From: Haloterrigena salifodinae
Lineage (GTDB): Archaea > Halobacteriota > Halobacteria > Halobacteriales > Natrialbaceae
Length of the DNA: 64,000 nt
Direction: 5' to 3'
NCBI RefSeq assembly: GCF_003977755.1
Contig: NZ_RQWN01000001.1
Coordinates: forward strand, 1,070,995 to 1,134,994
Below the pieces are notes generated by a model, which had not been told where the DNA came from, searched no databases, and worked only from the letters and a program-made list of their open reading frames with translations. The first letter of the stretch is position 1. Each line of letters begins with the position of its first letter. Positions 2,521 to 40,990 of the stretch are shown in pieces. The translations under genes and the position numbers were made by a program.

Positions 2521-3187
2521 CTCCACTCTTCAATCCCTAGTTCAATCCGCCTACAATCGGTTTCTTAGACCATTTTTGCCAAAAAAGCTAGCCGTTTACA
2601 ATGGTGTACCGATACGAGCAGTCAAACTTCTTGATCAGCAAGTAACCTTTCCTGATTATGAAAAGCCACTCATCGAGAGTGTTCGTTGTCATGCCAACAA
2701 GGGGGACACTATAGTCCAAATTGGTGGAGGACGGGGTCCAAGTACTGTTGCGGCTGTCAGAGCAGTTGAGCCATCGGGACACGTAATTGTGTACGAAGGC
2801 TCTCCCAAGTATATTAGCAAAATAAAGGAAACTCTGCATTTGAATAATGTTTCCGAATTCGTCGATATCCAACTTAAAATTGTGGGCGAGGATCGAGATG
2901 TTTGGGGAAAGACTGATAATGTGGAGATCATCGAACCAGAGAGGATTCCAAATTGTGATGTATTAGTACTTGATTGTGAAGGAGCAGAACAAGTAATTCT
3001 CCCAAGATTTAACTGTACTCCGGAAACCCTCATAGTTGAATCACACGGACAACTGGGATCCCCGACCGAAGACGTGAAGCAAAAGGTTGAGGAGAGAGGT
3101 TATATTATAAAAGATATTTCTCCTGAAGTCCCCGAGGAAGATGTTTATGTGATAACCGCTAAACGAAAGGAAGTCGATAATTCATGA
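2507..3187 (+). CDS. FkbM-family SAM-dependent methyltransferase
   Basis: About 226 residues. The class I methyltransferase motif I appears as TIVQIGGGRGPSTVAAV. It is followed by VIVYEGSPKYISKIKETL (FkbM-type motif with the acidic residue that binds the ribose hydroxyls) and CDVLVLDCEGAEQVIL (motif corresponding to the D-x-E-G-x-E core of FkbM proteins). Such enzymes commonly O-methylate sugars in surface-glycan clusters. I chose the ATG at 2507, which overlaps the upstream GT by 14 bases; a TTG nine bases earlier is possible. It shares the AT-rich composition of its neighbours and overlaps the next gene by ATGA. Confidence 0.85.
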   Translation: MPPLDSTLQSLVQSAYNRFLRPFLPKKLAVYNGVPIRAVKLLDQQVTFPDYEKPLIESVRCHANKGDTIVQIGGGRGPSTVAAVRAVEPSGHVIVYEGSPKYISKIKETLHLNNVSEFVDIQLKIVGEDRDVWGKTDNVEIIEPERIPNCDVLVLDCEGAEQVILPRFNCTPETLIVESHGQLGSPTEDVKQKVEERGYIIKDISPEVPEEDVYVITAKRKEVDNS

Positions 3188-4497
3188 CTCAAATTGCCCT
3201 AGTAGTTCTAGATACGCTCCGAAAGGATGCATTTGATAACCATTTTGACTGGCTTCCTGGTCAGCGGTTCGAGAACGCCTGGTCACCAAGTCACTGGACC
3301 GTTCCCGTACACGGTTCGTTGTTTACCGGAAAATACCCGACAGAGCATGGGAGTATAGCACACTCCAAGGCACTCTCTTGTAGAGATTCGACACTACCCG
3401 AAACGTTGGCTTCGGAAGGGTTCTCTACTAAGGGGTTTTCTGCAAATCCATTCATCACTCCAGCTTTCAATTTCGATAGAGGATTCGAGACGTTCGACGG
3501 TTCTTTCGACAATCTCCCAATGTTCGACGAGATTCTCGACTGGGGAGCGTTCCACGAGGAATACGGAGACGAAGGAATCCGCCGATTTGGGCGAGCATTA
3601 TTGAAATGTTTCCAGAAGGACGTAGACGCCGTTCAGTCACTCAAAACCGGTCTCCAAATAAAACTGCGTGAAGCTAGAGACCGTCAAGATAAAGATAGCG
3701 GCATTACCGAAGCGATTGAGTGGTTCAAGAGCCAAAAGCTCAGTGAAAATGAATTCGTATTTTTCAATCTGATGGAGGCACATGCTCCCTACGATAAGAT
3801 TCCTAAGAAGTATGTCTCTGGCTCGGCACCAAGGGAACTTGGTCTCCAGCACCACTTCGAACCACTTGATGAATCTCAAACGGCTGAGGCATACAATGCA
3901 GCAGTTTCCTACCTCTCTGACGCCTATAGGACATTGTTTGCAGATCTTACCAGACAAATGGACTATGTAATCACACTTGGAGATCACGGAGAACTACTTG
4001 GGGAGCATGAATACTACGGTCACGAATACGGTCTATTTCCTGAACTGACTCATGTTCCCTTGGTGGTATCGGGGGAGGGGTTAGAAAACAAGGAACTTGA
4101 TTCGGTGGTCAGTCTCCTTGATGTGTATCCGACTGTGCTCAAACTTGCCGGAATTCCCTCTAATCGAAGAGGAGAGCCGTTATTAGAGGACAAAATGGGG
4201 AGACGGGCGTACCTGACTGAAGGTCACGGACTTCCCAAAGATAGGGTTCTGAAGCTTTCTAACATGGGACACGATGTTGAGAGATACGATTCTGTATTCC
4301 GAGGTATCGTTACAACTGACGGCTACGAGTACGAATCCATAGATGGTTGGGAATCACATAGCTCCCATAAGTCAAATAAATTGCAGAATGAATTGAAAGA
4401 CCTTGTAGAACAACTTGAAAAACATTCTGAAACGGCGGATAGACCGGATATCTCACAAGCGGCACTCGAACGACTCAAAGCAAATGGCTACGCATGA
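3184..4497 (+). CDS. Sulfatase-like protein of the alkaline phosphatase superfamily (Thr nucleophile type)
   Basis: 437 residues with the sulfatase/alkaline-phosphatase fold. The first metal Asp is in IALVVLDTLR (D10). The nucleophile loop is SHWTVPVHGSLFTGKYP, with Thr39 at the position of the formylglycine Cys, and the distal metal site is ITLGDHGELLGEHEYYGHE near residue 265. Because the Cys is replaced by Thr, a true sulfatase is unlikely; Thr-nucleophile relatives include phosphoglycerol and phosphoethanolamine transferases and phosphatases. No signal peptide or membrane span is visible, so it should be cytosolic. It ends LKANGYA, a variant of the L-x-x-L-G-Y tail shared by all eight such proteins here. 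The closest relative in the window is the gene at 32778-34220. Confidence 0.82.
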   Translation: MTQIALVVLDTLRKDAFDNHFDWLPGQRFENAWSPSHWTVPVHGSLFTGKYPTEHGSIAHSKALSCRDSTLPETLASEGFSTKGFSANPFITPAFNFDRGFETFDGSFDNLPMFDEILDWGAFHEEYGDEGIRRFGRALLKCFQKDVDAVQSLKTGLQIKLREARDRQDKDSGITEAIEWFKSQKLSENEFVFFNLMEAHAPYDKIPKKYVSGSAPRELGLQHHFEPLDESQTAEAYNAAVSYLSDAYRTLFADLTRQMDYVITLGDHGELLGEHEYYGHEYGLFPELTHVPLVVSGEGLENKELDSVVSLLDVYPTVLKLAGIPSNRRGEPLLEDKMGRRAYLTEGHGLPKDRVLKLSNMGHDVERYDSVFRGIVTTDGYEYESIDGWESHSSHKSNKLQNELKDLVEQLEKHSETADRPDISQAALERLKANGYA

Positions 4498-4578
4498 TGT
4501 GTTCCAACGATAAGGTGAACTTCCGAAATTTCTGGCGCGAAAAATTGAAATTCCCCAGTTTTAATTTAAATATGATGG

Positions 4579-4588
4579 CTTTTAAGGT
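4579..4588 (+). promoter_or_regulatory. Probable TATA box for the 4615 gene
   Basis: A CTTTTAAGG element sits about 30 bases upstream of the ATG at 4615, the spacing expected for a leaderless haloarchaeal transcript. A second AT-rich stretch (TAATTTAAATA) lies at 4562-4572. The 117-base gap before 4615 is the only real break in the cluster so far, so a new transcript may begin here. Confidence 0.4.
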
Positions 4589-4614
4589 AGCTCTTCCAAC
4601 ACAGGTTAATTAAA

Positions 4615-5544
4615 ATGGGATTGAATGAATGGATTTACGAGTCGAAAAAAGAGGTCACTGAATTTGGTATCAGTGGTGCCCGAGGGGCTTTCTCAAAGTT
4701 GATGGTCGGCGGCGCAAAGCGACTTGGCCAATCCGTCAACTACGGAACGTCACAGTTTGAGCAGGATTGGGATGTACTCATTCTCCTCGATAGCTGTCGA
4801 CCTGACTATCTTCGGCAGGTGCACCAGGAGGCGGACCTCAACTGGGTCGAGGAAATAGACACTCAGTACTCGCCAGCGTCCTCCAGCATCGAGTGGGTGA
4901 ACAAGTGCCTCAAGACGCTTCACCCCGGAGAAAAAGAGGGTCTCTCAATCGTCTCCGGAAACGGATGGACCGAGAGAGAACTCGACGAATCGGAATTTCA
5001 CTCCGTCGAGACGCTCCTGCAGACGTACTGGGACGAAGAACGTGGCATTCTCCCGCCCGAAGTGGTTACGAATCACGCGATAAACCGTTGGCGCGATGAC
5101 AATCCAGACCGAATGCTCGTCTGGTACATGCAGCCGCACACGCCGCACCCAAGTATCAATGTCGAGTATGAGTTCGACACCGATATGCGTGGCGTGACCG
5201 ACGATTGGACAGAGACAGAGTACGCTCGCGTCGGAGTGCTGTCCGACGAGGAACTTCGAAGCGGCTACAAAGCGACACTGAAACTGGGACTGGAGGAAGT
5301 GGAGGTACTTGCAGCGAATCTCGAAGCGGAAAATGTCTATCTTTCAGCCGACCACGCGGAACTTCTCGGCGAATGGGGGCTATATGAACATCCAAGGTGG
5401 GCGCCGATTCCAAGGCTGAAGCGCGTTCCCTGGGTCAAAGTTGACGCGGAAGACAACCAAACGCGGATCCCCAAAGCCATGGACGAACACGAGAATGAAT
5501 CTGATCTGGACGACCGATTGCGGGCACTCGGATACAAGGCGTAA
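4615..5544 (+). CDS. Sulfatase-like protein, alkaline phosphatase superfamily
   Basis: 309 residues. The metal-binding Asp is in DVLILLDSCRPDYL (D59), the candidate nucleophile is a Ser in QYSPASSSIEWV (probably S86), and the second metal site is YLSADHAELLGEWGLYEHP. A PHTPHP segment fits the middle substrate-binding part of the family. It has a ~50-residue N-terminal extension that is not a signal peptide. There is no formylglycine Cys, so sulfate-ester hydrolysis by the classical mechanism is not expected. It ends LRALGYKA, matching the tail shared with the other family members in the window. Role inferred: phospho-group transfer or removal on a glycan intermediate. Confidence 0.72.
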   Translation: MGLNEWIYESKKEVTEFGISGARGAFSKLMVGGAKRLGQSVNYGTSQFEQDWDVLILLDSCRPDYLRQVHQEADLNWVEEIDTQYSPASSSIEWVNKCLKTLHPGEKEGLSIVSGNGWTERELDESEFHSVETLLQTYWDEERGILPPEVVTNHAINRWRDDNPDRMLVWYMQPHTPHPSINVEYEFDTDMRGVTDDWTETEYARVGVLSDEELRSGYKATLKLGLEEVEVLAANLEAENVYLSADHAELLGEWGLYEHPRWAPIPRLKRVPWVKVDAEDNQTRIPKAMDEHENESDLDDRLRALGYKA

Positions 5545-5631
5545 CAGGCACTCGAACGCTCGTCGAAGCCGAATCGTTTGGAGTACTACAACGGGCTTAT
5601 CTAATCGCACCCGAAACCAACGCGGAAAGCA

Positions 5632-6822: not shown

Positions 6823-6869
6823 GAGCAAAAACCGTTCATACTAAGCAATGGGAGGAACATCCGACGACA

Positions 6870-7784
6870 ATGACGATCGTTGTTTTAGCAATTGACGCGA
6901 TCGACCACGCGCTGGTCGACCATTTCGGTCTGGACGCCCTCTGCCTAGAGACCGACAGAGAGATCAAGACATTTAATTACTCCCTAGAGGTCCCGTACAC
7001 GCCGGAAGTCTGGACAACTGTCGCTACGGGACTGCCGATCGAGGAACACGACGTGAAGAACGCAGGAACGAGCGAGTGGAGCAATCCCGTCCTTGAATTC
7101 GCCTCGAAGTTCACGGGTCACCTCAGCGAACACACGCGCTACCGCCTTGGACAGCTCGTGACGACCCACACTGGCGAGGACTGGGGCTTCGGTGCGACGG
7201 ACATGGAGACGATGTTCTCGGAGGAGGGCCGATACCTTCACAACTGGCCGGGGATTGACAACTCCGACGTCGACGAGGTACATGGATTGTACAACAAGGC
7301 CATTGACGGCGAACTCGTCACCACCGAATTCGATGCGGCGGTCTACTCAATCGCGGCCCAGGAGTTTGAGTGGGTAGAGGAGCGACTTCGGTGCCGTGAT
7401 CGCGTAGGATTTGATCCATCTCTTCTTGGCGTCCATACACACATTCTGGACGCAGCAGGTCACATTTACGCTGAGGATGAAGATAAACTTAGAGAGTTTT
7501 ACCAGTGGGTCGCAGACCGGGTAAGGTCGATTCGAACGCAGCTGGATACGGACGATGAATTGCTGCTTCTCGGTGACCACGGGATGGAAGCAGAGTTCCT
7601 CGGTGACGACACGGCAGGGCAGCACTCTTGGCGACCTCATGTCGCATCCACAGCCGACTCCGTCCCGATGGACGTTGTCGACGTCCGAGAGTGGGTTGAG
7701 TCGCGGCTTGACGACATCGGTCGCCGAGGCGAGGAGATGGAGGTTCCGGAAGAGCAACTTCGCGATCTCGGATACATCTCATAA
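6870..7784 (+). CDS. Alkaline phosphatase superfamily protein (short, nucleotide-pyrophosphatase-like), copy 1
   Basis: 304 residues. It opens directly with the metal Asp (MTIVVLAIDAID, D9). The nucleophile loop is VPYTPEVWTTVATG, with Thr44 at the catalytic position as in type I phosphodiesterases/nucleotide pyrophosphatases, and the distal metal site is LLLGDHGMEAEF. A DAAGH segment (around residue 193) supplies another likely metal His. The reading frame is open upstream, but the ATG at 6870, preceded by GGGAGGA, is the likely start. It is a close tandem paralogue of the next gene (7787) and of 36375-37292. No signal peptide. It ends LRDLGYIS. Predicted cytosolic phospho-group enzyme. Confidence 0.75.
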   Translation: MTIVVLAIDAIDHALVDHFGLDALCLETDREIKTFNYSLEVPYTPEVWTTVATGLPIEEHDVKNAGTSEWSNPVLEFASKFTGHLSEHTRYRLGQLVTTHTGEDWGFGATDMETMFSEEGRYLHNWPGIDNSDVDEVHGLYNKAIDGELVTTEFDAAVYSIAAQEFEWVEERLRCRDRVGFDPSLLGVHTHILDAAGHIYAEDEDKLREFYQWVADRVRSIRTQLDTDDELLLLGDHGMEAEFLGDDTAGQHSWRPHVASTADSVPMDVVDVREWVESRLDDIGRRGEEMEVPEEQLRDLGYIS

Positions 7785-7786
7785 CG

Positions 7787-8686
7787 ATGACGCTACTTGT
7801 CGTTGCACTCGACGCACTTGACTCCGCACTCGTTGACGAGTTTGACGCTGATCGCCTGCGCTTAGAGACATCTGGGCGTATGGAAACCGTCTCTCATATG
7901 CGTGAGCAGCCGTACACGCCCGAGGCGTGGGCGTCCGCAGCCACGGGTATGCATCCGAGTGACCACGGTGTCAGCGGTGGGACGAGCAAGTGGAGTAACC
8001 CGCTCGTCGACTTTGCCTCTCGGTTCACAGGCCACCTCTCGATGTCGATGCGGTCTAATCTAGGAAACTTGATCGAGGGAGCCACCGGTGCGGAGTACAC
8101 GATTGCTGAAGTAGATTCACCCACGATGTTCGATGGTAAGGACAGGATCGTTCACAACTGGCCCGGTGTTTCGAATGGAGAGGAGTTGAAGCGTGCGTGG
8201 GACATCATGTGGCGAGAGGGTCAGACCAACGCTGAATTCGAACGCGATATCTTAGGGCTCGCTGCAGAGCAGTTCGGCTGGGTGCGCGAGATGCTGCAGC
8301 ATGACGTGTCCGTCGCAGGCGTTCACGTTCATTTGCTCGACGCAACCGGACATGCGTACACGGAAGACAGAGATCGACTGAGAACGGCATACGAGCGCGC
8401 CGGCGAGTTCGTGGGCGAACTCTGTAAGCGTCTAGATCCGAGTGACGACCTACTTCTGGTGAGCGACCATGGGATGACAGTCGACTTCTACTCTGACGAA
8501 CACGATCACGCTTCCGGCTCCGGGGCGCACTCTTGGCGAGCGTACGCAGCGAGTACGACCGACTCCGTCCCCGATACTATCCTCGACGTTAAGTCGTGGG
8601 TCAACGAGCACGCCCCACAGGTGGAAAGTGAAGACGAACGACTGGACATCGACGAGCAGCGACTCAGGGACCTCGGGTATATATGA
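7787..8686 (+). CDS. Alkaline phosphatase superfamily protein (short, nucleotide-pyrophosphatase-like), copy 2
   Basis: 299 residues, a tandem paralogue of the preceding gene. The layout is the same: MTLLVVALDALD, QPYTPEAWASAATG (Thr44 nucleophile), KWSNPLVDFASRFTGHLS, LLDATGHAYTED, LLLVSDHGMTVDF and a terminal LRDLGYI. Only two bases separate it from copy 1, and its stop overlaps the flippase start by ATGA, so the three genes form a tight translational unit. The tandem pair may act on two related linkages, or one copy may be regulatory, since the key residues of both are intact. No export signal is visible. Confidence 0.75.
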   Translation: MTLLVVALDALDSALVDEFDADRLRLETSGRMETVSHMREQPYTPEAWASAATGMHPSDHGVSGGTSKWSNPLVDFASRFTGHLSMSMRSNLGNLIEGATGAEYTIAEVDSPTMFDGKDRIVHNWPGVSNGEELKRAWDIMWREGQTNAEFERDILGLAAEQFGWVREMLQHDVSVAGVHVHLLDATGHAYTEDRDRLRTAYERAGEFVGELCKRLDPSDDLLLVSDHGMTVDFYSDEHDHASGSGAHSWRAYAASTTDSVPDTILDVKSWVNEHAPQVESEDERLDIDEQRLRDLGYI

Positions 8687-10122
8687 GTGCGGCGGAGGCG
8701 GATTTCGGCATTGAGATTTCAAAAGGCGTTCTTGCGAAGTTCTTCATGGCTGCGGTCGGGTTCGCCGGCTCAGTCGTTTTCGCCCGCGTACTCGGTCCCA
8801 CAGGGTATGGCGCATTCTATCTTCTCCTCACGCTCGTCGAAGTTCTCGACAACCCTGTAACAGGGTGGGGAGACGCCTGCAAAAAGCGAATCACGGAGGC
8901 TGGTTTTCCAATGGACGAAGCGCTCGGTGCGAGTCTCGTCGGTGCGGTGGCCGCTTCTTTAGTTGTCGTGCCGCTAGCTGTCATCTTTGGCCGGACGACC
9001 ACCGTCTACAATATCGACGGGATGGTTGTCCCGTTTGCTGTGCTCTTCATGTTTGTCTGTCTCTTTGCTTCGACGAATCGGGTGCTCTCGGCGCGCTCGA
9101 ACTTCTCGGCAGCGGATTGGTCTGATACACTCCGATCATTCCTGACGACACCGTTACAGCTTGGATTCGTGTTGCTCGGGTTCGGGGCTGCCGGTATGGC
9201 GTACGGACTCGCAGCAGCCACGGCTCTGACAGTTCCATACGTACTCTGGAAGATTCACCTGCGGCCTTCGGTTCCCTCATGGGAATCACTCGCCAGCATC
9301 AGACAGTACGCCAAGTATAGCGTCCCAAACGGATTTCTCGGAACGGCCTTGTCCCGGATGGATATCCTCCTCCTCGGCGCACTACTCTCGTCTGCAGCAG
9401 TGGGAAAGTATCAGGCGACAATGCAACTCACGATGCCAGGCACGTTCATCGGTGGCGTGGCGTCGGCGGGACTGATGGGACGCGTGAGCGAGTACAAGAG
9501 CAGGAATGACGAGACATCCATCCGAACTGATGTTGAGAACTCTCTTGGACACGCGAGTGTGATTGCGATTCCGATCTTCTTTGGCGCTGCAGCGATGCCG
9601 AACGACCTGCTCGTGACGGTGTTCGGATCCGAGTACAGCGGCGTCGGACTGGCATTCGTTGGAATCGCGCTGTTCCGGATAGTAAGTATGCAGACGAGTC
9701 AGGCCCAATCAACAATTAGTGGCATCGACCGTCCGGACATTAACACACGTGTGTCAGCAGTAGTACTTGTTCTTAATCTCGGCCTCGGTTACCTCCTTCT
9801 TCGTTGGTACGGCATTGTCGGCGTCGTTGCCGCAACGGTTGTCTCTGAGTTCGTGAAATACACTCTCACCGTGTACGCTCTCAAGCAGTATCTCCCCGAC
9901 GTCCCCGTGTTCACACAACCGTTCCGTGACCAAATTCTCGCGGGCGGAGTCATGTTCATCACCGTCGAGTTCGCTCATGGTGTTCTCGGCATTTCATGGT
10001 GGGGAGAGCTGCTGTTCCTCATCAGTCTTGGCGGTGCAATCTACTTTGCCGCACTCGTCGCTATCAGTGAGTCCTTCCGCATCACTGTCAGAGGTATCCT
10101 CTCAGACGCGTTGTCGGATTGA
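8683..10122 (+). CDS. Polysaccharide/oligosaccharide flippase (Wzx/RfbX-like, MOP superfamily)
   Basis: 479 residues with about 12-14 hydrophobic segments. The N-terminus (GVLAKFFMAAVGFAGSVVFARVLGPTGYG) is typical of Wzx/RfbX flippases of the MOP superfamily, which move lipid-linked oligosaccharides across the membrane. It shares many stretches, including GIDRPDINTRVSA and GAAGMAYGLAAAT, with the flippase at 31245-32687, so the two are paralogues. It is coupled by ATGA to the upstream AP-superfamily gene and lies just before aglB, where its product would hand dolichyl-linked glycans to the oligosaccharyltransferase. Confidence 0.88.
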   Translation: MSAAEADFGIEISKGVLAKFFMAAVGFAGSVVFARVLGPTGYGAFYLLLTLVEVLDNPVTGWGDACKKRITEAGFPMDEALGASLVGAVAASLVVVPLAVIFGRTTTVYNIDGMVVPFAVLFMFVCLFASTNRVLSARSNFSAADWSDTLRSFLTTPLQLGFVLLGFGAAGMAYGLAAATALTVPYVLWKIHLRPSVPSWESLASIRQYAKYSVPNGFLGTALSRMDILLLGALLSSAAVGKYQATMQLTMPGTFIGGVASAGLMGRVSEYKSRNDETSIRTDVENSLGHASVIAIPIFFGAAAMPNDLLVTVFGSEYSGVGLAFVGIALFRIVSMQTSQAQSTISGIDRPDINTRVSAVVLVLNLGLGYLLLRWYGIVGVVAATVVSEFVKYTLTVYALKQYLPDVPVFTQPFRDQILAGGVMFITVEFAHGVLGISWWGELLFLISLGGAIYFAALVAISESFRITVRGILSDALSD

Positions 10123-10400: not shown

Positions 10401-10454
10401 AGGCTTATTCTTGACTTGGGTCTGGTGCAACCTAATGAGTACGGACACCGAACA
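10401..10454 (+). repeat. aglB leader and start region (copy B of the 54-base repeat)
   Basis: This is the intact counterpart of 10217-10270. It contains AGGCTTATTCTTGACTTGG, which may include the aglB basal promoter, and the CCTAATGAG start context of aglB. Confidence 0.5.
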
Positions 10455-17184: not shown

Positions 17185-17260
17185 GAGTGTAGTCGTGGTC
17201 GTCGTGTCTCGCTCGCTCTCGAGTCGCTCGGCCGGTCGTCGGTTCTCCAGTTGGTCATCG

Positions 17261-18580: not shown

Positions 18581-18581
18581 C

Positions 18582-20252: not shown

Positions 20253-20264
20253 GCCTTCGTTCAA

Positions 20265-20559
20265 CCCTCTCTCTCCCGGACCTTTATTTTATCGACGGTT
20301 CCGGAACGTCCGTAACGAGTCGGTTGCCTCGAGATTGCCGCTCGAACGACGTGACGCCGACTGACCATCCGAAACGGTCGAGAAGCCTGAAAATAGCCGA
20401 AACGGACGATTACCAGGGGTAATTGGCCAGGTGGTATCAGATAGTATATGAAATACAATTTAGGAGTTCAACAAATTTTATAATGATAGTAGGTATTGTT
20501 TACCAGTATCGTGCGATCGTCGGTAAAGACATCGCGCGGAGCAACGAGGGAGATCACCA
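20265..20559. promoter_or_regulatory. Divergent glpA/glpK control region
   Basis: This 295-base gap separates the minus-strand glpABC from plus-strand glpK. It is AT-rich in its middle (20430-20500), with TATA-like elements on both sides (AGTATATGAAATAC at ~20443 and AAATTTTATAATG at ~20473). A short inverted repeat GGTA-TTGTT-TACC lies at 20492-20504 and could be a regulator site. I infer shared glycerol-responsive control, as known for glp genes of other haloarchaea, but cannot assign the regulator. Confidence 0.45.
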
Positions 20560-22101
<1,542 letters not shown>

Positions 22102-31244: not shown

Positions 31245-32687
31245 CTAGATCTCGAAGCGGGAGCTGTGGACAACGCCCCTGATCGTGATGCGAAGCTTTC
31301 GGCTGATCGCCGCCAGCGTGACGGCGTAGACGACCGCGCCAAGCGCGACGATCGCGAGGAGCTGGTACCAGTGGTCGACGGCGACGGCGCGTTCGACCGG
31401 GACGATCACGGCGAACATCGCGAGTCCGGCGACGAACTGCTCGCCGAGCGTCCGCGGGAAGAGGACGACCGACGGGAGCTGCCGTTTGATGACGACCGCC
31501 GAACAGACGTACCGGAGCGTCTCGGCGATCGCCGTCGCGACCACGACGCCAATCGCGCCGTAGACGAGCGTCAGCGCGACGCCGAGGACGATGTTGATCC
31601 CCAGCGTCAGCGCCGAGACGCGCGTGTTGATGTCCGGCCGATCGATCCCGTCGATCACGCTCGTGAGCACGCCGGCCTGGGTCTTCGCGATCTGGTAGAG
31701 CGCGAGTCCGACGAGGAGCACGGCGGCCTCGGCGTACTCCGGGCCGAAGAAGGTCACGACGAGCTGTTCCGGCATCGCGACGGCGCCGAAGAACATCGGG
31801 ATCGCGACGATGCTCGTAAACGCCAGCGTGTTCGAGACGTCCGTCCCCAGCTCCTCGCCCTTGCTGTGTCTGTGGCTGACGCGAGCCATGAGGCTGCTCG
31901 AGGCGGCCATCGTCACGAACGTCGCCGGCACCGTGAGTTTGAGCGCGACCTCGTAGTGGCCGGCGGCGGCGGGCGCTAACAGGTAGCCCAGCAGGATGAT
32001 GTCGAACCGGTCGTAGGCCTGACTGAGCAGCGAGTTCGGAATGCTGAACCTCGCGTACGACCAGAGGTTTTCGACGGTCTCGCGACCCGGCGCGACCGGC
32101 CGCACGCGGACGAAGTACCAGAGGATCGGCACCGTCAGGAACGTCGCCGCGGCCAGCCCGTAGGCCATGCCAGCGGCGCCGAGCCCGAGCAGGATCAGCC
32201 CCAACTGGAGCGGGAAGGTCAGCAGCGACCGGAGCGCGTCGGTCCACATCGACGCCCCGACGCGGCCCCGCGCCTGCACCATCAGATCCAGCGGCTCAAA
32301 GAGGGTGACGGCGAACAGCAGGACGACGAACAACACCGGCGCCTCGGGGAGCCCCGTGTAGTCGACCAGCTGGTTCGACACGACGAGCGTCACCGCACAG
32401 ACGAACACCATCCAGACGATCGTGAACAGGGCCTGGCTGCCGACCAGTTCGCCCGCCTCGGTATCCGACTCCGAGAACCGCTTCTTGACCGCGGTTCCCC
32501 ACCCGTTGACCGCCCGGTCGGCGATCTTCACCAGCGAGAAGAGGAGGTAGTAACCGCCGAATCCGGTCGGACCGAGCACCCGCGCGAAGACGATCGTTCC
32601 GAGGAACCCGATCGCGGCCATCGAGAACTTCGCGGCCGTCGCTTTGAGCGTCTCGCCGCCGAGACTGACGGAGGTCGCGTCACTCAT
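31245..32687 (-). CDS. Polysaccharide/oligosaccharide flippase (Wzx/RfbX-like), second copy
   Basis: 480 residues, about 12-14 hydrophobic spans, and the same N-terminal pattern as the flippase at 8683 (AAKFSMAAIGFLGTIVFARVLGPTGFGG). Shared stretches GLGAAGMAYGLAAAT and GIDRPDINTRVSA show that they are paralogues. It would flip the lipid-linked glycan made by the second cluster. It is the last gene of that cluster in the direction of transcription, mirroring the position of copy 1, but here no aglB follows. Confidence 0.87.
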   Translation of the reverse strand: MSDATSVSLGGETLKATAAKFSMAAIGFLGTIVFARVLGPTGFGGYYLLFSLVKIADRAVNGWGTAVKKRFSESDTEAGELVGSQALFTIVWMVFVCAVTLVVSNQLVDYTGLPEAPVLFVVLLFAVTLFEPLDLMVQARGRVGASMWTDALRSLLTFPLQLGLILLGLGAAGMAYGLAAATFLTVPILWYFVRVRPVAPGRETVENLWSYARFSIPNSLLSQAYDRFDIILLGYLLAPAAAGHYEVALKLTVPATFVTMAASSSLMARVSHRHSKGEELGTDVSNTLAFTSIVAIPMFFGAVAMPEQLVVTFFGPEYAEAAVLLVGLALYQIAKTQAGVLTSVIDGIDRPDINTRVSALTLGINIVLGVALTLVYGAIGVVVATAIAETLRYVCSAVVIKRQLPSVVLFPRTLGEQFVAGLAMFAVIVPVERAVAVDHWYQLLAIVALGAVVYAVTLAAISRKLRITIRGVVHSSRFEI

Positions 32688-32777: not shown

Positions 32778-34220
32778 TCACAGATATCCCAGCTCCTCGA
32801 GCTGGGATTCCAGACCGTCCATATCCGCCTCGGAGAGCCCCTCGCGGCGCTCGAGGTCGTCGATCAGCCGGTCGAGCGTCGACTCGAGGGTTGCTGGATC
32901 GCAGTCGCCGAGCAGCTCGGTCCCGGACAGCCCCTCGAAGTAGTAACAGTCGGTCGTCGCGACGCCGTGGCGTTCGCGGTCGACGGGGCCGATATCGTAG
33001 CCGTCCTCCTCGAGCGCGAGCGCGCGTCGCTTCGAGATGCCGTGGAACTCGAGCAGCGCGCTCGACCGCGGCTCAGTGATGACGGTGTCGCTCGAGTGTG
33101 ACTCGGTGTCGATCGGGTCGCTCGAGCACAGCGGCCGGAACGACTCGCCGCGGCGGTGGGCAGCGTCGACGCCGGCGAGGTCGAGCACCGTCGCGTAGAC
33201 GTCCAGCAGGTTCACAAGGGCGTCCCGCGTCGGTCGCTCCGCGCCGTCCGCGTTGGGGGTTCGGTCGTCGGCGTTCGGTCCGGGTGCGGAGACGACGAGC
33301 GGAACGCGGGTCACCGGCGGATGGAGGCCGCCGCCGTGTTGCCACGCGCCGTACTCGCCGAGCGCTTCGCCGTGGTCGGCGACCGTCACGACGTAGTCGA
33401 ATTCGGTGGCGAGTTCCGCGTAGATGTCGCGGTAGATGTCCGACAGGTACCGCACGGCGTCGTCGTACGCGGTCCTGATCCGCTCCGGATCGGCCGACGG
33501 CTCCCCGAGCGTGGCCTTCACGCTGTCGAAGTGCGGCGACTCCTCGTCCGGATAGGTCTTGTACTCGTCGGGCGGGTCGTACGGCAGGTGCGCCTCCATG
33601 AGATTCGCGAAGAGGAACTCGCCGTCCCGGGCCCACGACTCGTCGCGGACGTACTCGAGGAACTCCGCCGCGCCGTCGTCGGGGTGGCGCCCCTTGAGGC
33701 CCATATCCCGGAGCTTCATCAGGGCGCCCTGTTTCAGCGACTGGGTCGTATCGCAGTCGCCGTCGACGCACCGCCAGAGCGCCCGGAGATACCGTTCGGG
33801 GCCGTCAGCTTGGTGTTCGGCGATGAACTCGTCCCAATCGAAGACGTCCTCGCCGAGGCCGCTGAGCCGCCAGCCGCCGTCGAACTCGTCGAAGCCGTGG
33901 TGCCAGCCCAGCTGCTCCGAGATGTTGACGTTGCAGCTGAACGCCCGCGTCCGGTAGCCACGACCCTGGAGGAGTTCGGGGAGGCGAGTCGCCTCCCGAT
34001 CGAAATCCTGGGATTTGATCGTCACGCCGGCCTCGCTCGCGTACCGGCCGGTGAACAGCGAGGCGTGGGCCGGAGCCGTCCAGTGGCTCGTGCTCCACGC
34101 GTTCGCGAACTGCACGCCAGGCAGCCAGTCGAAGTGCTCGTCGAAGGAATCCGCCCGCAGGGTATCGAGCACGACGAGGGCGATGGATGGCTCGTCTCCC
34201 ATGGTTGCGTGTCCGTTCAT
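32778..34220 (-). CDS. Sulfatase-like protein of the alkaline phosphatase superfamily (Thr nucleophile type)
   Basis: 480 residues, the closest relative in the window of the gene at 3184. The blocks match one for one: SIALVVLDTLRADSFDEHFDWLPG versus IALVVLDTLRKDAFDNHFDWLPG (given in part), SHWTAPAHASLFTGRY with Thr at the formylglycine-Cys position, LFANLMEAHLPYDP, and VTVADHGEALGEYGAWQHGG. It is somewhat longer because of an inserted acidic stretch (~residues 310-400). No signal peptide is visible. It ends LEELGYL. The ATG at 34220 has GGAGGG upstream; an ATG six codons later is possible. Transcribed towards the flippase. Confidence 0.82.
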   Translation of the reverse strand: MNGHATMGDEPSIALVVLDTLRADSFDEHFDWLPGVQFANAWSTSHWTAPAHASLFTGRYASEAGVTIKSQDFDREATRLPELLQGRGYRTRAFSCNVNISEQLGWHHGFDEFDGGWRLSGLGEDVFDWDEFIAEHQADGPERYLRALWRCVDGDCDTTQSLKQGALMKLRDMGLKGRHPDDGAAEFLEYVRDESWARDGEFLFANLMEAHLPYDPPDEYKTYPDEESPHFDSVKATLGEPSADPERIRTAYDDAVRYLSDIYRDIYAELATEFDYVVTVADHGEALGEYGAWQHGGGLHPPVTRVPLVVSAPGPNADDRTPNADGAERPTRDALVNLLDVYATVLDLAGVDAAHRRGESFRPLCSSDPIDTESHSSDTVITEPRSSALLEFHGISKRRALALEEDGYDIGPVDRERHGVATTDCYYFEGLSGTELLGDCDPATLESTLDRLIDDLERREGLSEADMDGLESQLEELGYL

Positions 34221-35768: not shown

Positions 35769-35769
35769 C

Positions 35770-36041: not shown

Positions 36042-36094
36042 TGCCACGGCCTCCTCAGCCGATTCGTTCGCTCCTGACAGTCGCTCACGCATCC
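36042..36094 (+). repeat. Dispersed intergenic repeat, copy 2
   Basis: 53 bases that align without gaps to 27989-28041. It runs straight into the hairpin array that begins at 36096. I see no gene in 35656-36374. Confidence 0.6.
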
Positions 36095-36095
36095 A

Positions 36096-36254: not shown

Positions 36255-36374
36255 AGCGCGCGCTACCGTAGGTTGGATGGTCGATCCGGGGGGAGACGAC
36301 ACCCGTCCATACCGAGTGGAATTCGTCGATTGCACGAATCGCGACGATGAGCACTATGCGGTGCGATGTAGCAA

Positions 36375-37292
36375 TCAGTCGAGATAGCCAAGTTCACGCA
36401 GGCGTTCGGTCGGCATGTCGATCCCCTCGTCGCTGTCGGACGCACCAGCACCGGATTCTGCCGCGCGTTCTTCGACCCACCGGCGCACGTCGTAGACCGA
36501 TTTCGGATACGTGTCCGCCGTGGAGCTCGCGTACGCGCGCCAGGAGTGGCTCGCCGGCTTCTCGCCGGCGTCGGGCGGGTAGAACTCGGTTCGCATGCCG
36601 TGATCGCTGACAACGAGGAGTTCGTCGTCCTCGCCGAGGGCGGCGACGATCTCCTGGACGAACTCGCCGACGCGTTCGTAAGCGCGGCCCAGCGCGGCCT
36701 CGTCGTCGGCGTAGGCGTGGCCCGCCGCGTCCAGCGTGTGGACGTGGACGCCGGCGATCGAGACCGGGTGTGCGAGCATCTCGCGAGCCCAGCCGAACTG
36801 CTGGGCGCAGAGCCCGAACAGCTCGCGCTCGAACTCGCTTCGGGGCATCCCCTCCGCGACGGCGTTCATCAGGTCCCAGGCCCGCTGGAGGGGTGTCCCG
36901 TCGTGGACGCCCGGCCAGTTGTGGACGACGGCGTCGTCGGCGTCGAACATCGACTCGCGATCCGTCTCACCGATGCGCTCGCGCGTGCCGGTTCGAGAAC
37001 GGACCAGTTTGCCGAGCGTCCCCCGCGTCGACTCGTCGAGGTGACCGGTGACCGTCGAGGCGAGATCGAGTGCGGGGTTTTGCCACTCGCTCGTGCCGCC
37101 GCCCGTAATTCCGTGTTCGGACGGCTCGAGCCCGGTCGCGACGGTCGCCCAGACCTCCGGCGTGTACGGGACGTCTTGCGTGTTCGCGAACGTCTCGATC
37201 TCGCCGCCCGACTCGAGGCGGAACGAGTCGAGATCGAAGTGGTCGATCAGTCCGGCATCGAGCGCGTCGAGCGCCAGTACGACGACGGTCAT
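36375..37292 (-). CDS. Alkaline phosphatase superfamily protein (short, nucleotide-pyrophosphatase-like), copy 3
   Basis: 305 residues, a clear paralogue of 6870-7784 and 7787-8686. It has MTVVVLALDALD (metal Asp9), VPYTPEVWATVATG (Thr44 nucleophile), TSEWQNPALDLASTVTGHL, HTLDAAGHAYADD and LLVVSDHGMRTEF, and ends LRELGYLD. It overlaps the upstream sulfatase-like gene by ATGA, so they are coupled. No signal peptide. Presence of this subtype in both clusters suggests a core step of the pathway. Confidence 0.77.
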   Translation of the reverse strand: MTVVVLALDALDAGLIDHFDLDSFRLESGGEIETFANTQDVPYTPEVWATVATGLEPSEHGITGGGTSEWQNPALDLASTVTGHLDESTRGTLGKLVRSRTGTRERIGETDRESMFDADDAVVHNWPGVHDGTPLQRAWDLMNAVAEGMPRSEFERELFGLCAQQFGWAREMLAHPVSIAGVHVHTLDAAGHAYADDEAALGRAYERVGEFVQEIVAALGEDDELLVVSDHGMRTEFYPPDAGEKPASHSWRAYASSTADTYPKSVYDVRRWVEERAAESGAGASDSDEGIDMPTERLRELGYLD

Positions 37293-38398
37293 GCGTATCC
37301 CAGGTCCTCCAGGTCTTCCTGCAGCGCCTCTTCCTTGACGACGTAGGCGGGATCGAACCGCTCGAGTTCCCGCTCGAGTCCGGGGTCGTCGACCGGTTCG
37401 CCGTTGTCGAGTCGGTACGTGCCGTCCGCCGTCGCGATGTGTTCGGCGGTCATCGCGGCCTTTTGGTCCCCGTAGGCGGCGAAGGCGGTGTCGCGGTCGA
37501 ACGTGCCCTGGCGGTGTTCGCTACCGGTCAGGACCGTCGGCACGTCAATCAGGGAGACGACCTCGCCGACGTCGGGGGCGTTCCGCGTGCCGAACGGGAC
37601 GTTTAGCAGTTCGGGGCGCATCTCGCCGGGGTGGCCCCACAGCCCGTCCTCGCCGAGCAACTCGCCGTGGTCCCCACAGAAGACGACCCGAGTCTCGTCG
37701 GGGATCGCGTTCCAGAGGGGCTCGAGAGCCGCGTCGAGTTCGGCGATCTCCTGCCGGTAGAGATTTCGGACGAGGGCCTCGTCCTCCTCGGAGCCACGTT
37801 CCGAGAGGACGCGGCGGGTGACCCGCTGGGCCGTCGCGCGGTCGACGTTCGCACCATCGGGGTCGTACGGATGATGGGGCTCCATGAAGTGCAGCCAACC
37901 AAACCACTCCTCGCGGCCGTCGACTGCGTGCAGAAACTGGTCCACGACGTCCGCAGCGGGGCGGAACGACTTCTCGGTCTCCTCGATGTAGCTCCGGAGC
38001 TGCTGGTAGCGGTTGTAGCCCCAGCTGGCGACCTTGTAGGGAAGCGAGCCGCGCTCGAGGAGGATCGCGCCCTTGTCCTTCAGCGACTCGCCGCCACCCT
38101 TCGGCGACGTGAACGAGTCGAAGCCGGCCGCGTAGCCGTACTCCTGAGAGAGCAAGTGGTTCGTCGTGACCCCGACGCTGGGGGCGTCGAACTCGTGGGC
38201 GACGCTGGCCTCGGACTCGAGGCCGTTGCCGGCCGGATACTCCCCGCCGATGATCGCCGGGAAGCTGCCGGGCGTCGCGGTGCTCGTGGCGAACGCGGCG
38301 TCGTGGGTGTCGTCCAGAAACGCCAGGGTCTCCGGCATGTACTGGACGTGATCGGTTCTGAGCGAATCGACCGTAACTAGCAGGGTGGTTTCCGTCAT
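37289..38398 (-). CDS. Sulfatase-like protein, alkaline phosphatase superfamily
   Basis: 369 residues. It starts at the metal site (MTETTLLVTVDSLRTDHV, D11). The nucleophile loop reads TATPGSFPAIIGGEYPAGNG; by spacing to the Gly-Gly/Tyr-Pro end, Thr42 takes the catalytic place. The middle block is WLHFMEPHHPYDP and the distal metal site is VVFCGDHGELLGEDGLWGH. The frame is open 43 codons upstream, but that part is Arg-rich and overlaps the neighbouring gene; the ATG at 38398 is preferred. No signal peptide. It ends LEDLGYA. Confidence 0.8.
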   Translation of the reverse strand: MTETTLLVTVDSLRTDHVQYMPETLAFLDDTHDAAFATSTATPGSFPAIIGGEYPAGNGLESEASVAHEFDAPSVGVTTNHLLSQEYGYAAGFDSFTSPKGGGESLKDKGAILLERGSLPYKVASWGYNRYQQLRSYIEETEKSFRPAADVVDQFLHAVDGREEWFGWLHFMEPHHPYDPDGANVDRATAQRVTRRVLSERGSEEDEALVRNLYRQEIAELDAALEPLWNAIPDETRVVFCGDHGELLGEDGLWGHPGEMRPELLNVPFGTRNAPDVGEVVSLIDVPTVLTGSEHRQGTFDRDTAFAAYGDQKAAMTAEHIATADGTYRLDNGEPVDDPGLERELERFDPAYVVKEEALQEDLEDLGYA

Positions 38399-38444
38399 GT
38401 GCGTGGTTCGTAGCCTCCGTCTGTAGCGCGAAGCGATCGGCTGC

Positions 38445-39899
38445 TCATAGGTATCCGAGATCCTCCAGTCGGGCGCGACTCGCCGCGTCGACCGCCTCGG
38501 CGTGGTCCCGACCGTCCCGCGTCTCATCGGTAACCCAGTCGCCGAAGGCGGACTCGAAGAGCCCGTCCGGCACCGTCTCGTCAGGCAGTTCGACCTGTTT
38601 CGACGGCGGTCCGGAGACGTCGTAGACGGCCTCGTCGCCGAGCTGATCGCGGTAGTATTTCCGGTCGCCCTCGTAGACGACCCGCTGGCCCCGATCCCAG
38701 TAGGACTCGTCCCCGCCCTCCGGGATGCCGGAACCGGAGCCGACGATCTCGGCGCGAGCGCGCTTGCGCTCGAGGGCGAACGGATCGAACGGCTCCTCGC
38801 CCGCGAGCGACCGGACCGCGTCGCTGAGATCGGCGTGGGAGGCGAGCCCGTCGACGTCGACGGGACGGAAAGTATCGTCGACCGCGAGCTCGAGGGCGCT
38901 GTCGTCGGTGGCCACGACGTCGAACGGAACGTGTAACAGCCCCTCCGAGAGGCTGCTCATGTGGTTCATGAGGTAGCCGTCCGACTCGTAGCCGAGGTTC
39001 TCGCCGTGGTCGGCCGTCACGATCAGGATCGACTCGCGGTCGTCCTCGCGCGCTAACGCGTCCAGGAGGTCGGTAACGACCCGATCGAGGTAGTCGACCG
39101 TCGCGGCGTAGAGTCGACGGACGCGCTCGACGTCCGAGGCGTATTCGCCAAGGCCGTCCGCGACGTTGACGTCCGAGTCCCGGAACGAACTCGAGTGGAA
39201 GTCCGCGGAGACGCCGTGAATTGACTCCTCGAGCCCGCGAAAGGCGGTGTGGGGACCGTGGGCGTCCATGACGTTGGCGAAGGCGACGACCGGCCCGTCG
39301 GGCTCGGCGACCTCCCGCTCGAGGGTGCGGGCGATCGCCCGGCCGCCGAAGTCAGTCGGCTTCTCGATCGGCAGCTTCCGGCTCACGTCGTCGAGTTTGA
39401 GCAGGACGCCGTTGGCCAGCGAGCGCAGCGGGTGGTCGTGGGCGAGGGCCTCGCGGACGAAGTCGGCGTAGGCCTCGACGCCGTCGGTCGACCGGTCGGA
39501 GATGTGTTCCTGGACGTCCATCCCCGCCGGCAGCCGACGGCTCGGCGAGATGGGGACCGTCCGGTCGAAGAACCGGTCGAAGCCGAAGACGGGGCTGGCG
39601 TAGATGTTCGACGTGACGCAGACCGACTCGTACCCCTGTCGCTCGAGGGGCGCGATCCAGGTGTCTTCGGCGTCGATCCGATCGAACCGACGTTGGTGAG
39701 CGTGGACGCCGGTCTCCGATGCGACCGAGCCGGTCAGGAGGCCGGCGTGGCTCGGGACGCTCCAGCCGCCGAGCGCGCGCATTCCCTCGAAGCGGACGGC
39801 CGCCCGCTCCCGAAGACGGGTCGCGAATCGGTCGTAGACATCCTTTCTGACGGTGTCCAGACAGAGGACGACGATATTCGGTTGGCGATTGCCGGTCAT
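38445..39899 (-). CDS. Sulfatase-like protein, alkaline phosphatase superfamily (Ser at catalytic position)
   Basis: 484 residues. Metal Asp in NIVVLCLDTVRKDVYD (D15), nucleophile loop GGWSVPSHAGLLTGSVASE with Ser47 in the Cys position, middle block FANVMDAHGPH, and distal site ILIVTADHGENLGYESDG. A Ser-type sulfatase would need the radical-SAM maturase AtsB, which is not in this window, so a phospho-enzyme is at least as likely. It starts at the ATG at 39899, overlapping the upstream GT by ATGA. It ends LEDLGYL. No export signal is visible. Confidence 0.8.
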   Translation of the reverse strand: MTGNRQPNIVVLCLDTVRKDVYDRFATRLRERAAVRFEGMRALGGWSVPSHAGLLTGSVASETGVHAHQRRFDRIDAEDTWIAPLERQGYESVCVTSNIYASPVFGFDRFFDRTVPISPSRRLPAGMDVQEHISDRSTDGVEAYADFVREALAHDHPLRSLANGVLLKLDDVSRKLPIEKPTDFGGRAIARTLEREVAEPDGPVVAFANVMDAHGPHTAFRGLEESIHGVSADFHSSSFRDSDVNVADGLGEYASDVERVRRLYAATVDYLDRVVTDLLDALAREDDRESILIVTADHGENLGYESDGYLMNHMSSLSEGLLHVPFDVVATDDSALELAVDDTFRPVDVDGLASHADLSDAVRSLAGEEPFDPFALERKRARAEIVGSGSGIPEGGDESYWDRGQRVVYEGDRKYYRDQLGDEAVYDVSGPPSKQVELPDETVPDGLFESAFGDWVTDETRDGRDHAEAVDAASRARLEDLGYL

Positions 39900-40990
39900 G
39901 CGAACCCCTCGAGTGCAGCGCTGAAGCGGTCGCCCTGATTCGATTCGGTCAGGTCGGCGACGAGGTCTCGCTGCTCGCTCGCGACCGCCCGTCGCTCGTG
40001 CGGCGGTCGCTCGAAGACGTCCCACAGTCCCTCGAACAGACCCGCCTCAGTCGACGGGACGACCTGCCGCGGCGGCAGGAGCTCCCGGACGCCGGTCGCC
40101 TCGGTGACCAGCGTCGGCGTGCCCGAGAGGAGCCCCTCGAGCGCGGCGACGGGGAAGGCGTCGCCCCGGGAGGACTGGACGTAGACGCTCGCGCGGTCGA
40201 ACCAGTCGGCGAAGGTATCGAGGTCGACGAAGCCGGGCGTGAGGACGTGGGACCTGTCCGCGTAGCCTTCGGCCTCGTGGCCCTCGCCGAGGATGACCAG
40301 TCGCACGTCGGCGTCGACGGTTCGGGCGAATCTGCCGACCGCTCGAGCCAGTCGGTCGTAGCCGTTGGCCGGTTTGGCCTCGCCGGCGGAAAGGATCGTG
40401 AACGGCTCCCGTGGCGAGTTCGGCGAGAGAGACGCGAGGCGCTCGTACTTCGCATCACTGATCGGCGGCCGGACGTAGGCGACCGGAGGATCGCCGAGGT
40501 ACGGTTGCGCCCAGCGGTAGGCGTCCCTGCCGACCGCGATCACGCCGTCCAGCAGCCGCCTCGAGAGCGGCTCGAGCCCGCGCCAGAGGTAGCGCGTCGG
40601 CCGTTCGGAGAGGGTGTAGAAGGTCTCGTCCGCGGCGAGGTAGACGAGGGTCGCGTCCGGCCGGCGGAGTTTGTACGCGAGCCCGGTCTGGAGCGGCGCG
40701 CTCCCCTCCGCGATGACGGTGTCGTACGCGGGAAGCGTCACGCCGGTCCGAATCCGGTCGACGATCCGCTCGGTGTTGCCGTTCGATTCGGACGGACGGA
40801 CGCCGGTCTCGAAGTGGCGACGGTCGGCGCCGACGGCGTCGGCGAACACGCGGTGTGCGGGGTGGGCGTCGCTGTTCTGGTAGAGGAGACAACAGTCGCC
40901 GGGTTTCGTTCCCCGCGAACGTGTGGATTCGGCGTCCGTTCGCATCCTCGAGTCGCCGCCCCGATCGCGAGCGGTCGCGCTCGCCGTCAC
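39896..40990 (-). CDS. Glycosyltransferase family 4 (GT-B fold)
   Basis: 364 residues from a GTG that overlaps the preceding stop as GTGA, which supports that start; an ATG at residue 16 is an alternative. The C-terminal GT4 domain shows FTILSAGEAKPANGYDRLA, VRLVILGEGHEAEGY and SRGDAFPVAALEGLLSGTPTLV (E-x7-E region). The N-terminal domain includes LLDGVIAVGRDAYRW. Second GT4 of this cluster, coupled on both sides. Donor unknown. Confidence 0.85.
   Translation of the reverse strand: MTASATARDRGGDSRMRTDAESTRSRGTKPGDCCLLYQNSDAHPAHRVFADAVGADRRHFETGVRPSESNGNTERIVDRIRTGVTLPAYDTVIAEGSAPLQTGLAYKLRRPDATLVYLAADETFYTLSERPTRYLWRGLEPLSRRLLDGVIAVGRDAYRWAQPYLGDPPVAYVRPPISDAKYERLASLSPNSPREPFTILSAGEAKPANGYDRLARAVGRFARTVDADVRLVILGEGHEAEGYADRSHVLTPGFVDLDTFADWFDRASVYVQSSRGDAFPVAALEGLLSGTPTLVTEATGVRELLPPRQVVPSTEAGLFEGLWDVFERPPHERRAVASEQRDLVADLTESNQGDRFSAALEGFA

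What the first reader, a model, noticed from the sequence alone, without database searches (positions are those of the whole stretch)
3184..40025. Eight alkaline-phosphatase-superfamily proteins with Thr or Ser in place of the formylglycine Cys, and no signal peptides
Genes at 3184, 4615, 6870, 7787, 32778, 36375, 37289 and 38445 all keep the metal-binding Asp near the N-terminus and the D-H/D-x-x-x-x site later. The catalytic loop has Thr (six clear or probable cases) or Ser (two), never Cys. None begins with an export signal, whereas sulfatases and LtaS-type enzymes normally act outside. No formylglycine-generating enzyme is in the window. I infer cytosolic phospho-group enzymes (phosphodiester transferases or phosphatases) acting on lipid-linked glycans, possibly an undescribed class of glycan-modifying enzymes in haloarchaea.
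Basis: partly seen in the sequence, partly recalled or inferred. Interest (0 to 1): 0.85.

Follow-up and report, generated by a model that had tools for sequence, protein, structure and literature searches.

The report
Cytosolic sulfatase-fold glycan sulfotransferases in haloarchaea
A salt-loving archaeon carries eight intracellular enzymes that look like sulfate-removing sulfatases but have a different catalytic residue and share an unusual tail, and their nearest tested relatives add sulfate to surface sugars rather than remove it.

Summary
All eight genes are alkaline-phosphatase (AP) superfamily proteins beside aglB, flippases and glycosyltransferases. The nucleophile is Thr or Ser, never Cys. 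None has a visible signal peptide, and no FGE is found in the whole genome. Of 237 relatives, the nucleophile column was Thr/Ser in 227 of 227 scored (3 gaps, 7 not scored).

(1) In 2025 two AP-superfamily proteins of the Halobacterium salinarum aglB cluster, Agl30 and Agl31, were shown genetically to sulfate the N-glycan (PMC11980604). Peptides encoded by that paper's primers place Agl30 and its neighbour VNG1063H in the P0002 family, and less surely Agl31 with P0001/P0005. (2) All eight proteins end in L-x-x-[LN]-G-Y. In the window exactly these eight ORFs do. A DNA pattern for this tail finds 8 sites in the 5 Mb genome: 7 are AP-superfamily C-termini; the reversed control finds none.

Best reading: cytosolic AP-fold sulfotransferases acting on lipid-linked glycan before flipping. 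Thr/Ser would hold sulfate covalently, as FGly cannot. The donor is unknown: canonical ATP-sulfurylase, CysN and APS-kinase genes were not found, only a divergent CysD carrying the same tail. Phosphotransfer remains the main rival.

The parts
3184..4497 (+). P0001, PF00884-fold, subfamily A (putative Agl31-like), nucleophile Thr (WTVPVH), tail LKANGYA at 4474-4497
4615..5544 (+). P0002, subfamily B = Agl30/VNG1063H family, nucleophile Ser86 or Ser91, tail LRALGYKA at 5518-5544; model pLDDT 91.5
6870..7784 (+). P0003, PF01663-type, subfamily C, Thr (YTPEVW), D-x-x-G-H, D-H, H; tail LRDLGYIS
7787..8686 (+). P0004, PF01663-type, subfamily C, Thr (YTPEAW), tail LRDLGYI
8683..10122 (+). flippase-like polysaccharide transporter (PF13440)
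10411..13431 (+). AglB oligosaccharyltransferase (PF02516, AglB_L1)
32778..34220 (-). P0005, PF00884-fold, subfamily A, Thr (WTAPAH), tail LEELGYL; model pLDDT 84.6, S1 sulfatase fold over model residues ~2-454 plus a C-terminal helix 457-470 (model residue = protein residue minus 7)
36375..37292 (-). P0006, PF01663-type, subfamily C, Thr (YTPEVW), tail LRELGYLD
37289..38398 (-). P0007, PF00884-type, subfamily D, Thr (TATPGSF), tail LEDLGYA
38445..39899 (-). P0008, PF00884-type, subfamily E, Ser (WSVPSH), tail LEDLGYL
31245..32687 (-). second flippase-like transporter (PF13440) beside P0005

Best explanation
The eight proteins are cytosolic (or peripherally membrane-bound) AP-fold sulfotransferases that decorate lipid-linked glycans before two flippases and AglB export and attach them. 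Inferred mechanism: a divalent metal held by the N-terminal Asp, the D-H pair and a later His activates Thr/Ser; this takes the sulfuryl group from a donor as a sulfo-Thr/Ser ester. A formylglycine sulfatase can expel sulfate through its gem-diol; a Thr/Ser ester cannot, so sulfate waits for a sugar hydroxyl and the sulfatase fold becomes a transferase. Different subfamilies would serve different sugars or positions. The conserved C-terminal tail marks the class; its role (fold-back element or docking site) is unknown. Shown in another species, by others: Agl30 and Agl31 are needed for N-glycan sulfation. Shown here by sequence: P0002 is in Agl30's family. Inferred: activity, donor and acceptors in this organism, and that P0003, P0004, P0006, P0007 and P0008 do the same chemistry.
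For: Deleting VNG1056C (Agl30) or VNG1057C (Agl31) lowers N-glycan sulfation, and expressing either in Hfx. volcanii adds what is read as sulfate (PMC11980604: abstract, sections 17 and 23, and passages). Read in the one frame that fits, primers printed there encode DFGHLDM, ITDRTV and C-terminus HLEDLGYL for VNG1056C; P0002 relatives L142, L108, L119 hold close variants of the first two 23 residues apart and end DHLEDLGYL or DHLQDLGYL. VNG1063H's primer encodes VHYFQPH: median score 39 of 45 in the P0002 family (128), at most 29 in any other group, at most 24 in 300 control ORFs. VNG1057C is PF00884-like by the paper; its primer peptides fit subfamily A best, weakly. Tail: exactly 8 window ORFs of 40 aa or more; 218 of 237 relatives; 7 of 8 genome-wide pattern hits, control 0. 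Context: AglB, flippases, glycosyltransferases.
Against: VNG1063H, a P0002-family member, had no sulfation phenotype. P0002 is only about 28-30% identical to the Agl30-like proteins L142, L108 and L116. I found no tested relative for subfamilies C, D or E. The nearest solved folds to P0002 are phosphoethanolamine transferases (4kav Z 15.6) level with a sulfatase (6hhm Z 15.4). Sulfate and phosphate differ by about 0.01 Da (general knowledge), so +80 Da in Hfx. volcanii does not by itself name the group. No standard sulfate-activation genes were found. An alternative frame of the VNG1056C reverse primer (NHRQNG) scores up to 29 of 36 in subfamily G (control at most 24), so single peptides can mislead. 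Thr/Ser proteins without the tail exist in subfamily F, and 20 of 30 viral P0002 relatives lack it. The tail also ends two unrelated protein kinds.
Confidence: 0.6

Rival explanations
1. Phosphodiester or phosphate transferases (like EptA, LtaS, OpgB but cytosolic) that add phosphoethanolamine, phosphoglycerol or phosphate to lipid-linked glycans; the first reader's reading.
For: Thr nucleophile and metal ligands resemble EptA/MCR; the P0002-family profile's best PDB sequence hits are EptA-like, E 0.003, and structure hits lead with EptA. P0003/4/6 are PF01663 with a full two-metal NPP-type site.
Against: Tested members of the same families change sulfation (PMC11980604). No transmembrane anchor. 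By title, P0005's 50 listed structural neighbours are sulfatases, sulfamidase and phosphonate monoester hydrolases (an unlisted family is not excluded). NCBIfam transferase models stay far below cut-off.
Confidence: 0.2
2. Hydrolases: phosphatases, phosphodiesterases or sulfatases that edit or recycle lipid-linked glycans, nucleotide sugars or a spent sulfate donor. Most plausible for P0003, P0004 and P0006 (PF01663).
For: PF01663 with Thr, D-x-x-G-H, D-H and H at 95-100% in 21 relatives.
Against: Same tail as the Agl30/31 families and same loci. Hydrolysis is not what was reported for Agl30/31.
Confidence: 0.12
3. Ordinary type I sulfatases in which Ser (or Cys) is matured to formylglycine.
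For: Sulfatase fold of P0005; Ser-type maturation exists (passage of PMC6189696).
Against: Thr gives no FGly by the routes I know of; in P0005 the C/S-x-P/A-x-R motif has His for Arg; no FGE in the genome (anaerobic maturase not searched); no export signal seen. The genome's two PF00884 proteins seen with Cys lack the tail.
Confidence: 0.03
4. Mixed set: Agl30/Agl31-like members (P0001, P0002, P0005) are sulfotransferases, while C, D and E subfamilies do other group transfers on the same glycans.
For: Only A and B have tested relatives that I could place; subfamilies differ in metal sites.
Against: Common tail at 96-100% in A-E and G (92% at the second Leu in A) suggests a common partner or role.
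Confidence: 0.35

Closest known systems
Agl30 (VNG1056C) and VNG1063H of Halobacterium salinarum
   Same: P0002 family by primer-encoded peptides, tail (Agl30) and lack of a Pfam/InterPro family; aglB cluster
   Different: P0002 about 28-30% identical to Agl30-like proteins; Agl30 membrane-associated with a predicted TM, none seen in P0002; VNG1063H has no known role
Agl31 (VNG1057C) of Halobacterium salinarum
   Same: PF00884-type, soluble, tail LEELGYT; subfamily A (P0001, P0005) fits its primer peptides best
   Different: Subfamily assignment weak; full sequence not available here
Type I (S1) sulfatases, e.g. 6hhm, 5g2t/5g2u (uronate 2-O-sulfatase)
   Same: Fold of P0005 (Z about 32); 5g2u and 6hhm are also what the 2025 paper found for its proteins
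   Different: Thr/Ser for FGly Cys, His for the motif Arg (P0005), no FGE, no export signal, conserved C-terminal tail
EptA/MCR phosphoethanolamine transferases
   Same: Thr/Ser nucleophile, transferase logic, fold of P0002 (Z about 15)
   Different: No membrane domain, cytosolic, tested relatives transfer sulfate
NPP / PF01663 phosphodiesterases
   Same: P0003, P0004, P0006 keep Thr and the two-metal ligands
   Different: No export signal, glycan loci, tail
PAPS-dependent carbohydrate sulfotransferases
   Same: Presumed reaction
   Different: Unrelated fold (general knowledge); no such domain matched in these proteins

Membership tests
Agl30 family (P0002) | Shares Agl30's sequence blocks and C-terminus | tested here: met
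   Primer peptides DFGHLDM, ITDRTV, HLEDLGYL match P0002 relatives in order and spacing; P0002 aligns to them at about 28-30%
Agl30 family (P0002) | Sulfates a lipid-linked or N-linked glycan | not testable with these tools
   needs genetics or biochemistry
Agl30 family (P0002) | Membrane association | tested here: inconclusive
   No hydrophobic TM segment (KD at most 0.64); N-terminal helices 3-17 and 19-40 predicted, possibly peripheral
Agl31 family (P0001, P0005) | PF00884-like, no TM, tail; best PDB match 6hhm (P0005 only) | tested here: met
Agl31 family (P0001, P0005) | Sequence orthology to VNG1057C | tested here: inconclusive
   Primer peptides fit subfamily A best (median 26 against 18-23 elsewhere), weak
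Type I formylglycine sulfatase | Cys (or Ser)-x-Pro-x-Arg matured to FGly | tested here: not met
   Thr/Ser, His or other residue for the motif Arg
Type I formylglycine sulfatase | FGE in the genome | tested here: not met
   PF03781 in 0 of 1 genome; anaerobic maturase not searched
Type I formylglycine sulfatase | Sulfatase fold | tested here: met
   P0005 model
EptA/LtaS-type transferases | N-terminal membrane domain | tested here: not met
EptA/LtaS-type transferases | Thr nucleophile with Asp, D-H and His metal ligands | tested here: met
   (by sequence; Ser in P0002 and P0008)
NPP / PF01663 (P0003, P0004, P0006) | Pfam model above cut-off and two-metal ligands | tested here: met
PAPS-dependent P-loop sulfotransferase | Sulfotransferase domain | tested here: not met
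   No such Pfam match in any of the 8 at E 0.01

The most novel reading that the evidence does not exclude
A class of two-step (ping-pong) sulfotransferases built on the alkaline-phosphatase fold, with a sulfo-threonine/serine intermediate and a donor other than PAPS (perhaps APS made by a divergent CysD that carries the same L-x-x-L-G-Y tail), the tail being the part that couples enzyme and donor supply; sulfatase-like genes marked by this tail would then be mis-annotated sulfate-adding enzymes.
Probability: 0.2. Interest if true: 0.88.

Novelty: new variant of a known kind. Interest (0 to 1): 0.64.

Why it matters
Many haloarchaeal genes annotated 'sulfatase' or 'alkaline phosphatase family' would be enzymes that add sulfate, not remove it. 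That gives a concrete chemical reason (Thr/Ser for formylglycine) for turning a hydrolase fold into a transferase, a short sequence signature that finds them genome-wide (it also found one that the Pfam searches of this genome did not list), and an open, testable question: where the activated sulfate comes from in haloarchaea that seem to lack the standard ATP-sulfurylase and APS-kinase genes.

Tried and rejected
Primer search for VNG1057C (1 mismatch allowed) in 392 Halobacteriales genomes and exact in genome contigs: no match. Halobacterium salinarum DSM 3754 (G392) was reached through L131, but in L131 and the G392 loci fetched the only primer match with up to 3 mismatches was an 18-base primer at 3 mismatches in L131, taken as chance; likewise one in L068. 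Its cluster therefore seems to differ from that of the published strain, at least in the parts I held, and the placement of Agl30/31 rests on primer-encoded peptides, not full sequences.

APS kinase: PF01583 rings in 8 of 8 genomes, but the single hits in G000 (L184) and G392 (L233) look like SRP receptor (name by recall) and are matched over model positions 2-54 and 2-50, and two of the ~200-aa hits in other genomes (L231, L232; others not read) look like generic P-loop kinases. PF01507 hits include NcsA (tRNA thiolation), set aside. CysN: the best hits (286-292 bits, cut-off 336) are probably EF1A (inferred from length and score; sequence not read).

A protein-docking role versus an intramolecular role for the tail could not be decided: model coordinates are not readable here. 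The 11 tail-bearing ORFs that are not AP relatives were looked at: 8 are one small ribbon-helix-helix protein (CdrS-like by recall; only a search listing seen), 3 appear to be frame artefacts or unclear. Tail-less AP relatives: 19 of 237 fail the strict pattern, of which 5 have a variant or extended tail and some are fragments. An earlier count said 11 of 30 viral relatives have the tail; recounted it is 10 of 30.
Full report
Observation. The eight reading frames exist. Pfam puts four in PF00884 (P0001, P0005, P0007, P0008), three in PF01663 (P0003, P0004, P0006) and gives nothing for P0002. P0005 aligns with solved sulfatase 6hhm so that Thr stands where Cys is and His where the motif Arg is. 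In relatives collected from haloarchaeal loci the nucleophile column is Thr or Ser in 227 of 227 rows with a letter in subfamilies A to F, Cys in none; 3 rows have a gap and the 7 rows of subfamily G were not scored one by one. For P0002 two candidate columns exist, Ser86 (Ser121/Thr3 of 128) and Ser91 (Ser107/Thr19 of 128); the count uses the second. No export signal is seen: in seven proteins the metal Asp is at residue 9-19, and P0002 begins with two predicted helices and no hydrophobic segment. Among relatives a hydrophobic segment before the first core strand was found in 0 of 115 B, 0 of 13 A, 1 of 16 C, 0 of 14 D, 0 of 11 E and 1 of 39 F proteins in which the strand was recognised (simple hydropathy cut-offs). 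FGE is absent from the whole genome.

Setting. P0001 and P0002 lie side by side, followed by a glycosyltransferase, P0003, P0004, a flippase and AglB; the second group (P0005-P0008) lies beside a second flippase, a weak pyruvyl-transferase match (below Pfam's cut-off) and glycosyltransferases. Among 87 loci with such genes, 64 hold two or more.

What it is. The decisive lead is a 2025 mBio paper (PMC11980604; I saw the abstract, sections 17 and 23, and passages). [quoted passage not shown] a third, VNG1063H, had no detected role. I had no full sequence of these proteins, but the printed primers encode short peptides. VNG1056C: DFGHLDM, ITDRTV, and C-terminus HLEDLGYL. P0002 relatives L108, L119 and L142 carry DFGHLDL or DFGQLDM, 23 residues later VTDRTV or ITDRTV, and end DHLQDLGYL or DHLEDLGYL. 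VNG1063H: VHYFQPH, the P0002-family block HYMQPH. Each primer was read in three frames; the other frames fit no better, except that NHRQNG (another frame of the VNG1056C reverse primer) scores up to 29 of 36 in subfamily G against at most 24 in controls. The order and spacing of three peptides make the P0002 placement firm in my view. VNG1057C is PF00884-like by the paper and ends LEELGYT; its peptides fit subfamily A (P0001, P0005) best but weakly. P0001-P0002 in this window may thus mirror the Agl31-Agl30 pair (adjacent by gene number).

The tail. All eight proteins end in L-x-x-[LN]-G-Y plus 1-2 residues, and no other ORF of 40 aa or more in the window does. In 13 aglB loci of one genus (Halobacterium, judged), 14 of 14 tail-bearing ORFs of 150 aa or more are relatives of the eight. 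In 94 stretches (1.87 Mb, 7743 distinct ORFs of 100 aa or more) 237 AP relatives were found; 218 carry the strict tail, and of 229 tail-bearing ORFs 218 are AP relatives. Its Leu, Leu, Gly and Tyr are conserved at 92-100% in subfamilies A, B, C, D, E and G, as strongly as the catalytic residues; subfamily F is mixed (by my count of the lists, 30 of 43 with the strict tail). In the own genome 10 of 12 PF00884 matches have the tail; the two without are the two seen with Cys (L003, L004) (for L001 the tail was seen but not the nucleophile). Among PF01663 matches L014-L016 have it, while L013 and L021 (iPGM-like, by recall) lack it. A DNA pattern for one form of the tail hits 8 places in the 4.96 Mb genome with 0 for the reversed pattern: 7 are C-termini of AP proteins, including a P0002-type gene at C2:290196 not listed by the Pfam searches, and one is a non-gene frame. 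The pattern is not sensitive: it finds 4 of the window's 8. Two other protein kinds share the tail: a small ribbon-helix-helix protein (10 loci) and a CysD-like protein (below). So the tail is a strong marker of this class in these genomes but not exclusive to it.

Structure. The P0002 model (pLDDT 91.5) resembles EptA (4kav Z 15.6, 205 residues, 3.1 A) and sulfatase 6hhm (Z 15.4, 205 residues, 3.7 A) equally. The P0005 model (84.6) is a sulfatase S1 fold (4upl Z 33.6; 6hhm 32.3; 5g2t 32.0); most of the 50 listed rows end by model residue 457, before or at the start of the tail helix (457-470), while four phosphonate monoester hydrolase rows run on to 460-470 at higher rmsd.

Mechanism. By sequence each subfamily keeps the N-terminal Asp, Thr/Ser, D-H and a later His. 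Substituting formylglycine in sulfatases is known to trap the sulfated enzyme (title of Recksiek et al. 1998, seen in the reference list of PMC6189696; paper not read; that the substitution was Ser is recalled). I infer that Thr/Ser holds sulfate until a sugar hydroxyl takes it. In Hbt. salinarum sulfation is thought to follow assembly of the complete DolP-tetrasaccharide (PMC11980604 section 23; passages of PMC8674786), consistent with a cytosolic site.

Donor. In 8 genomes including G000 and Hbt. salinarum DSM 3754 (G392), homomeric ATP sulfurylase was found in 0 of 8 and CysN above cut-off in 0 of 5; APS-kinase hits exist in 8 of 8, but the only ones in G000 and G392 look like SRP receptor. 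A divergent CysD-like protein was seen in all 8 (loci L170-L177; NCBIfam CysD 81 bits against a cut-off of 195 for the own copy) and ends MERLRDLGYM, the same tail; E. coli CysD ends MELKKRQGYF. This is a lead, not proof, that tail and sulfate activation are linked.

Limits. VNG1063H shows that membership in P0002's family does not guarantee a sulfation role. Mass spectrometry of +80 Da cannot alone separate sulfate from phosphate; for Hbt. salinarum itself sulfation also rests on older chemistry and NMR cited there. For PF01663-type P0003, P0004 and P0006, and for P0007 and P0008, I found no tested relative. Viral contigs hold 30 P0002 relatives, 10 with the tail, so the fold exists without it and the tail is not confined to haloarchaeal chromosomes.

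Verdict. A real and coherent set. The activity class became known in 2025 for two proteins; the Thr/Ser rule over six subfamilies, the signature tail, its reach into PF01663-type proteins and the missing donor pathway are what this work adds. I did not see the tail or the Thr/Ser rule for these proteins in the listings of searches, nor in the parts of papers that I read; most of the listed papers were not opened, so this is a weak claim of novelty.

Noticed in passing
G000:C1 about 188.8-189.8 kb (L185:3797-4777, minus): CysD-like (PF01507) protein whose C-terminus MERLRDLGYM matches the tail of the eight enzymes; no CysN, ATP sulfurylase or clear APS kinase found in this genome.
   Followed up: partly
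L074, L079, L083, L086, L095, L098, L099, L116, L132, L133: A small ribbon-helix-helix protein (MTEYTTVSIPK..., CdrS-like by recall) also ends in L-x-x-L-G-Y and recurs in these loci.
   Followed up: partly
L003 (CTSAR) and L004 (CSPSR), own genome: Two Cys-type sulfatase-like genes, by eye without an export signal, in a genome with no FGE match; how they would be matured is unclear.
   Followed up: no
L193-L222 (IMG/VR viral contigs): Thirty viral loci encode P0002 relatives; 10 keep the tail, many of the others are shorter and end soon after the V-P-W strand.
   Followed up: partly
G392 (Hbt. salinarum DSM 3754), L158: The type strain has three AP genes with the tail on one contig, but no fetched part matches the published strain's primers well, suggesting strain-specific glycan clusters.
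   Followed up: partly
L075: Five Thr-type AP reading frames without the tail on one contig.
   Followed up: no
window 15829-22101: Glycerol-3-phosphate dehydrogenase-like genes and a glycerol kinase-like gene lie between the two glycan gene groups (by reading the translations only).
   Followed up: no
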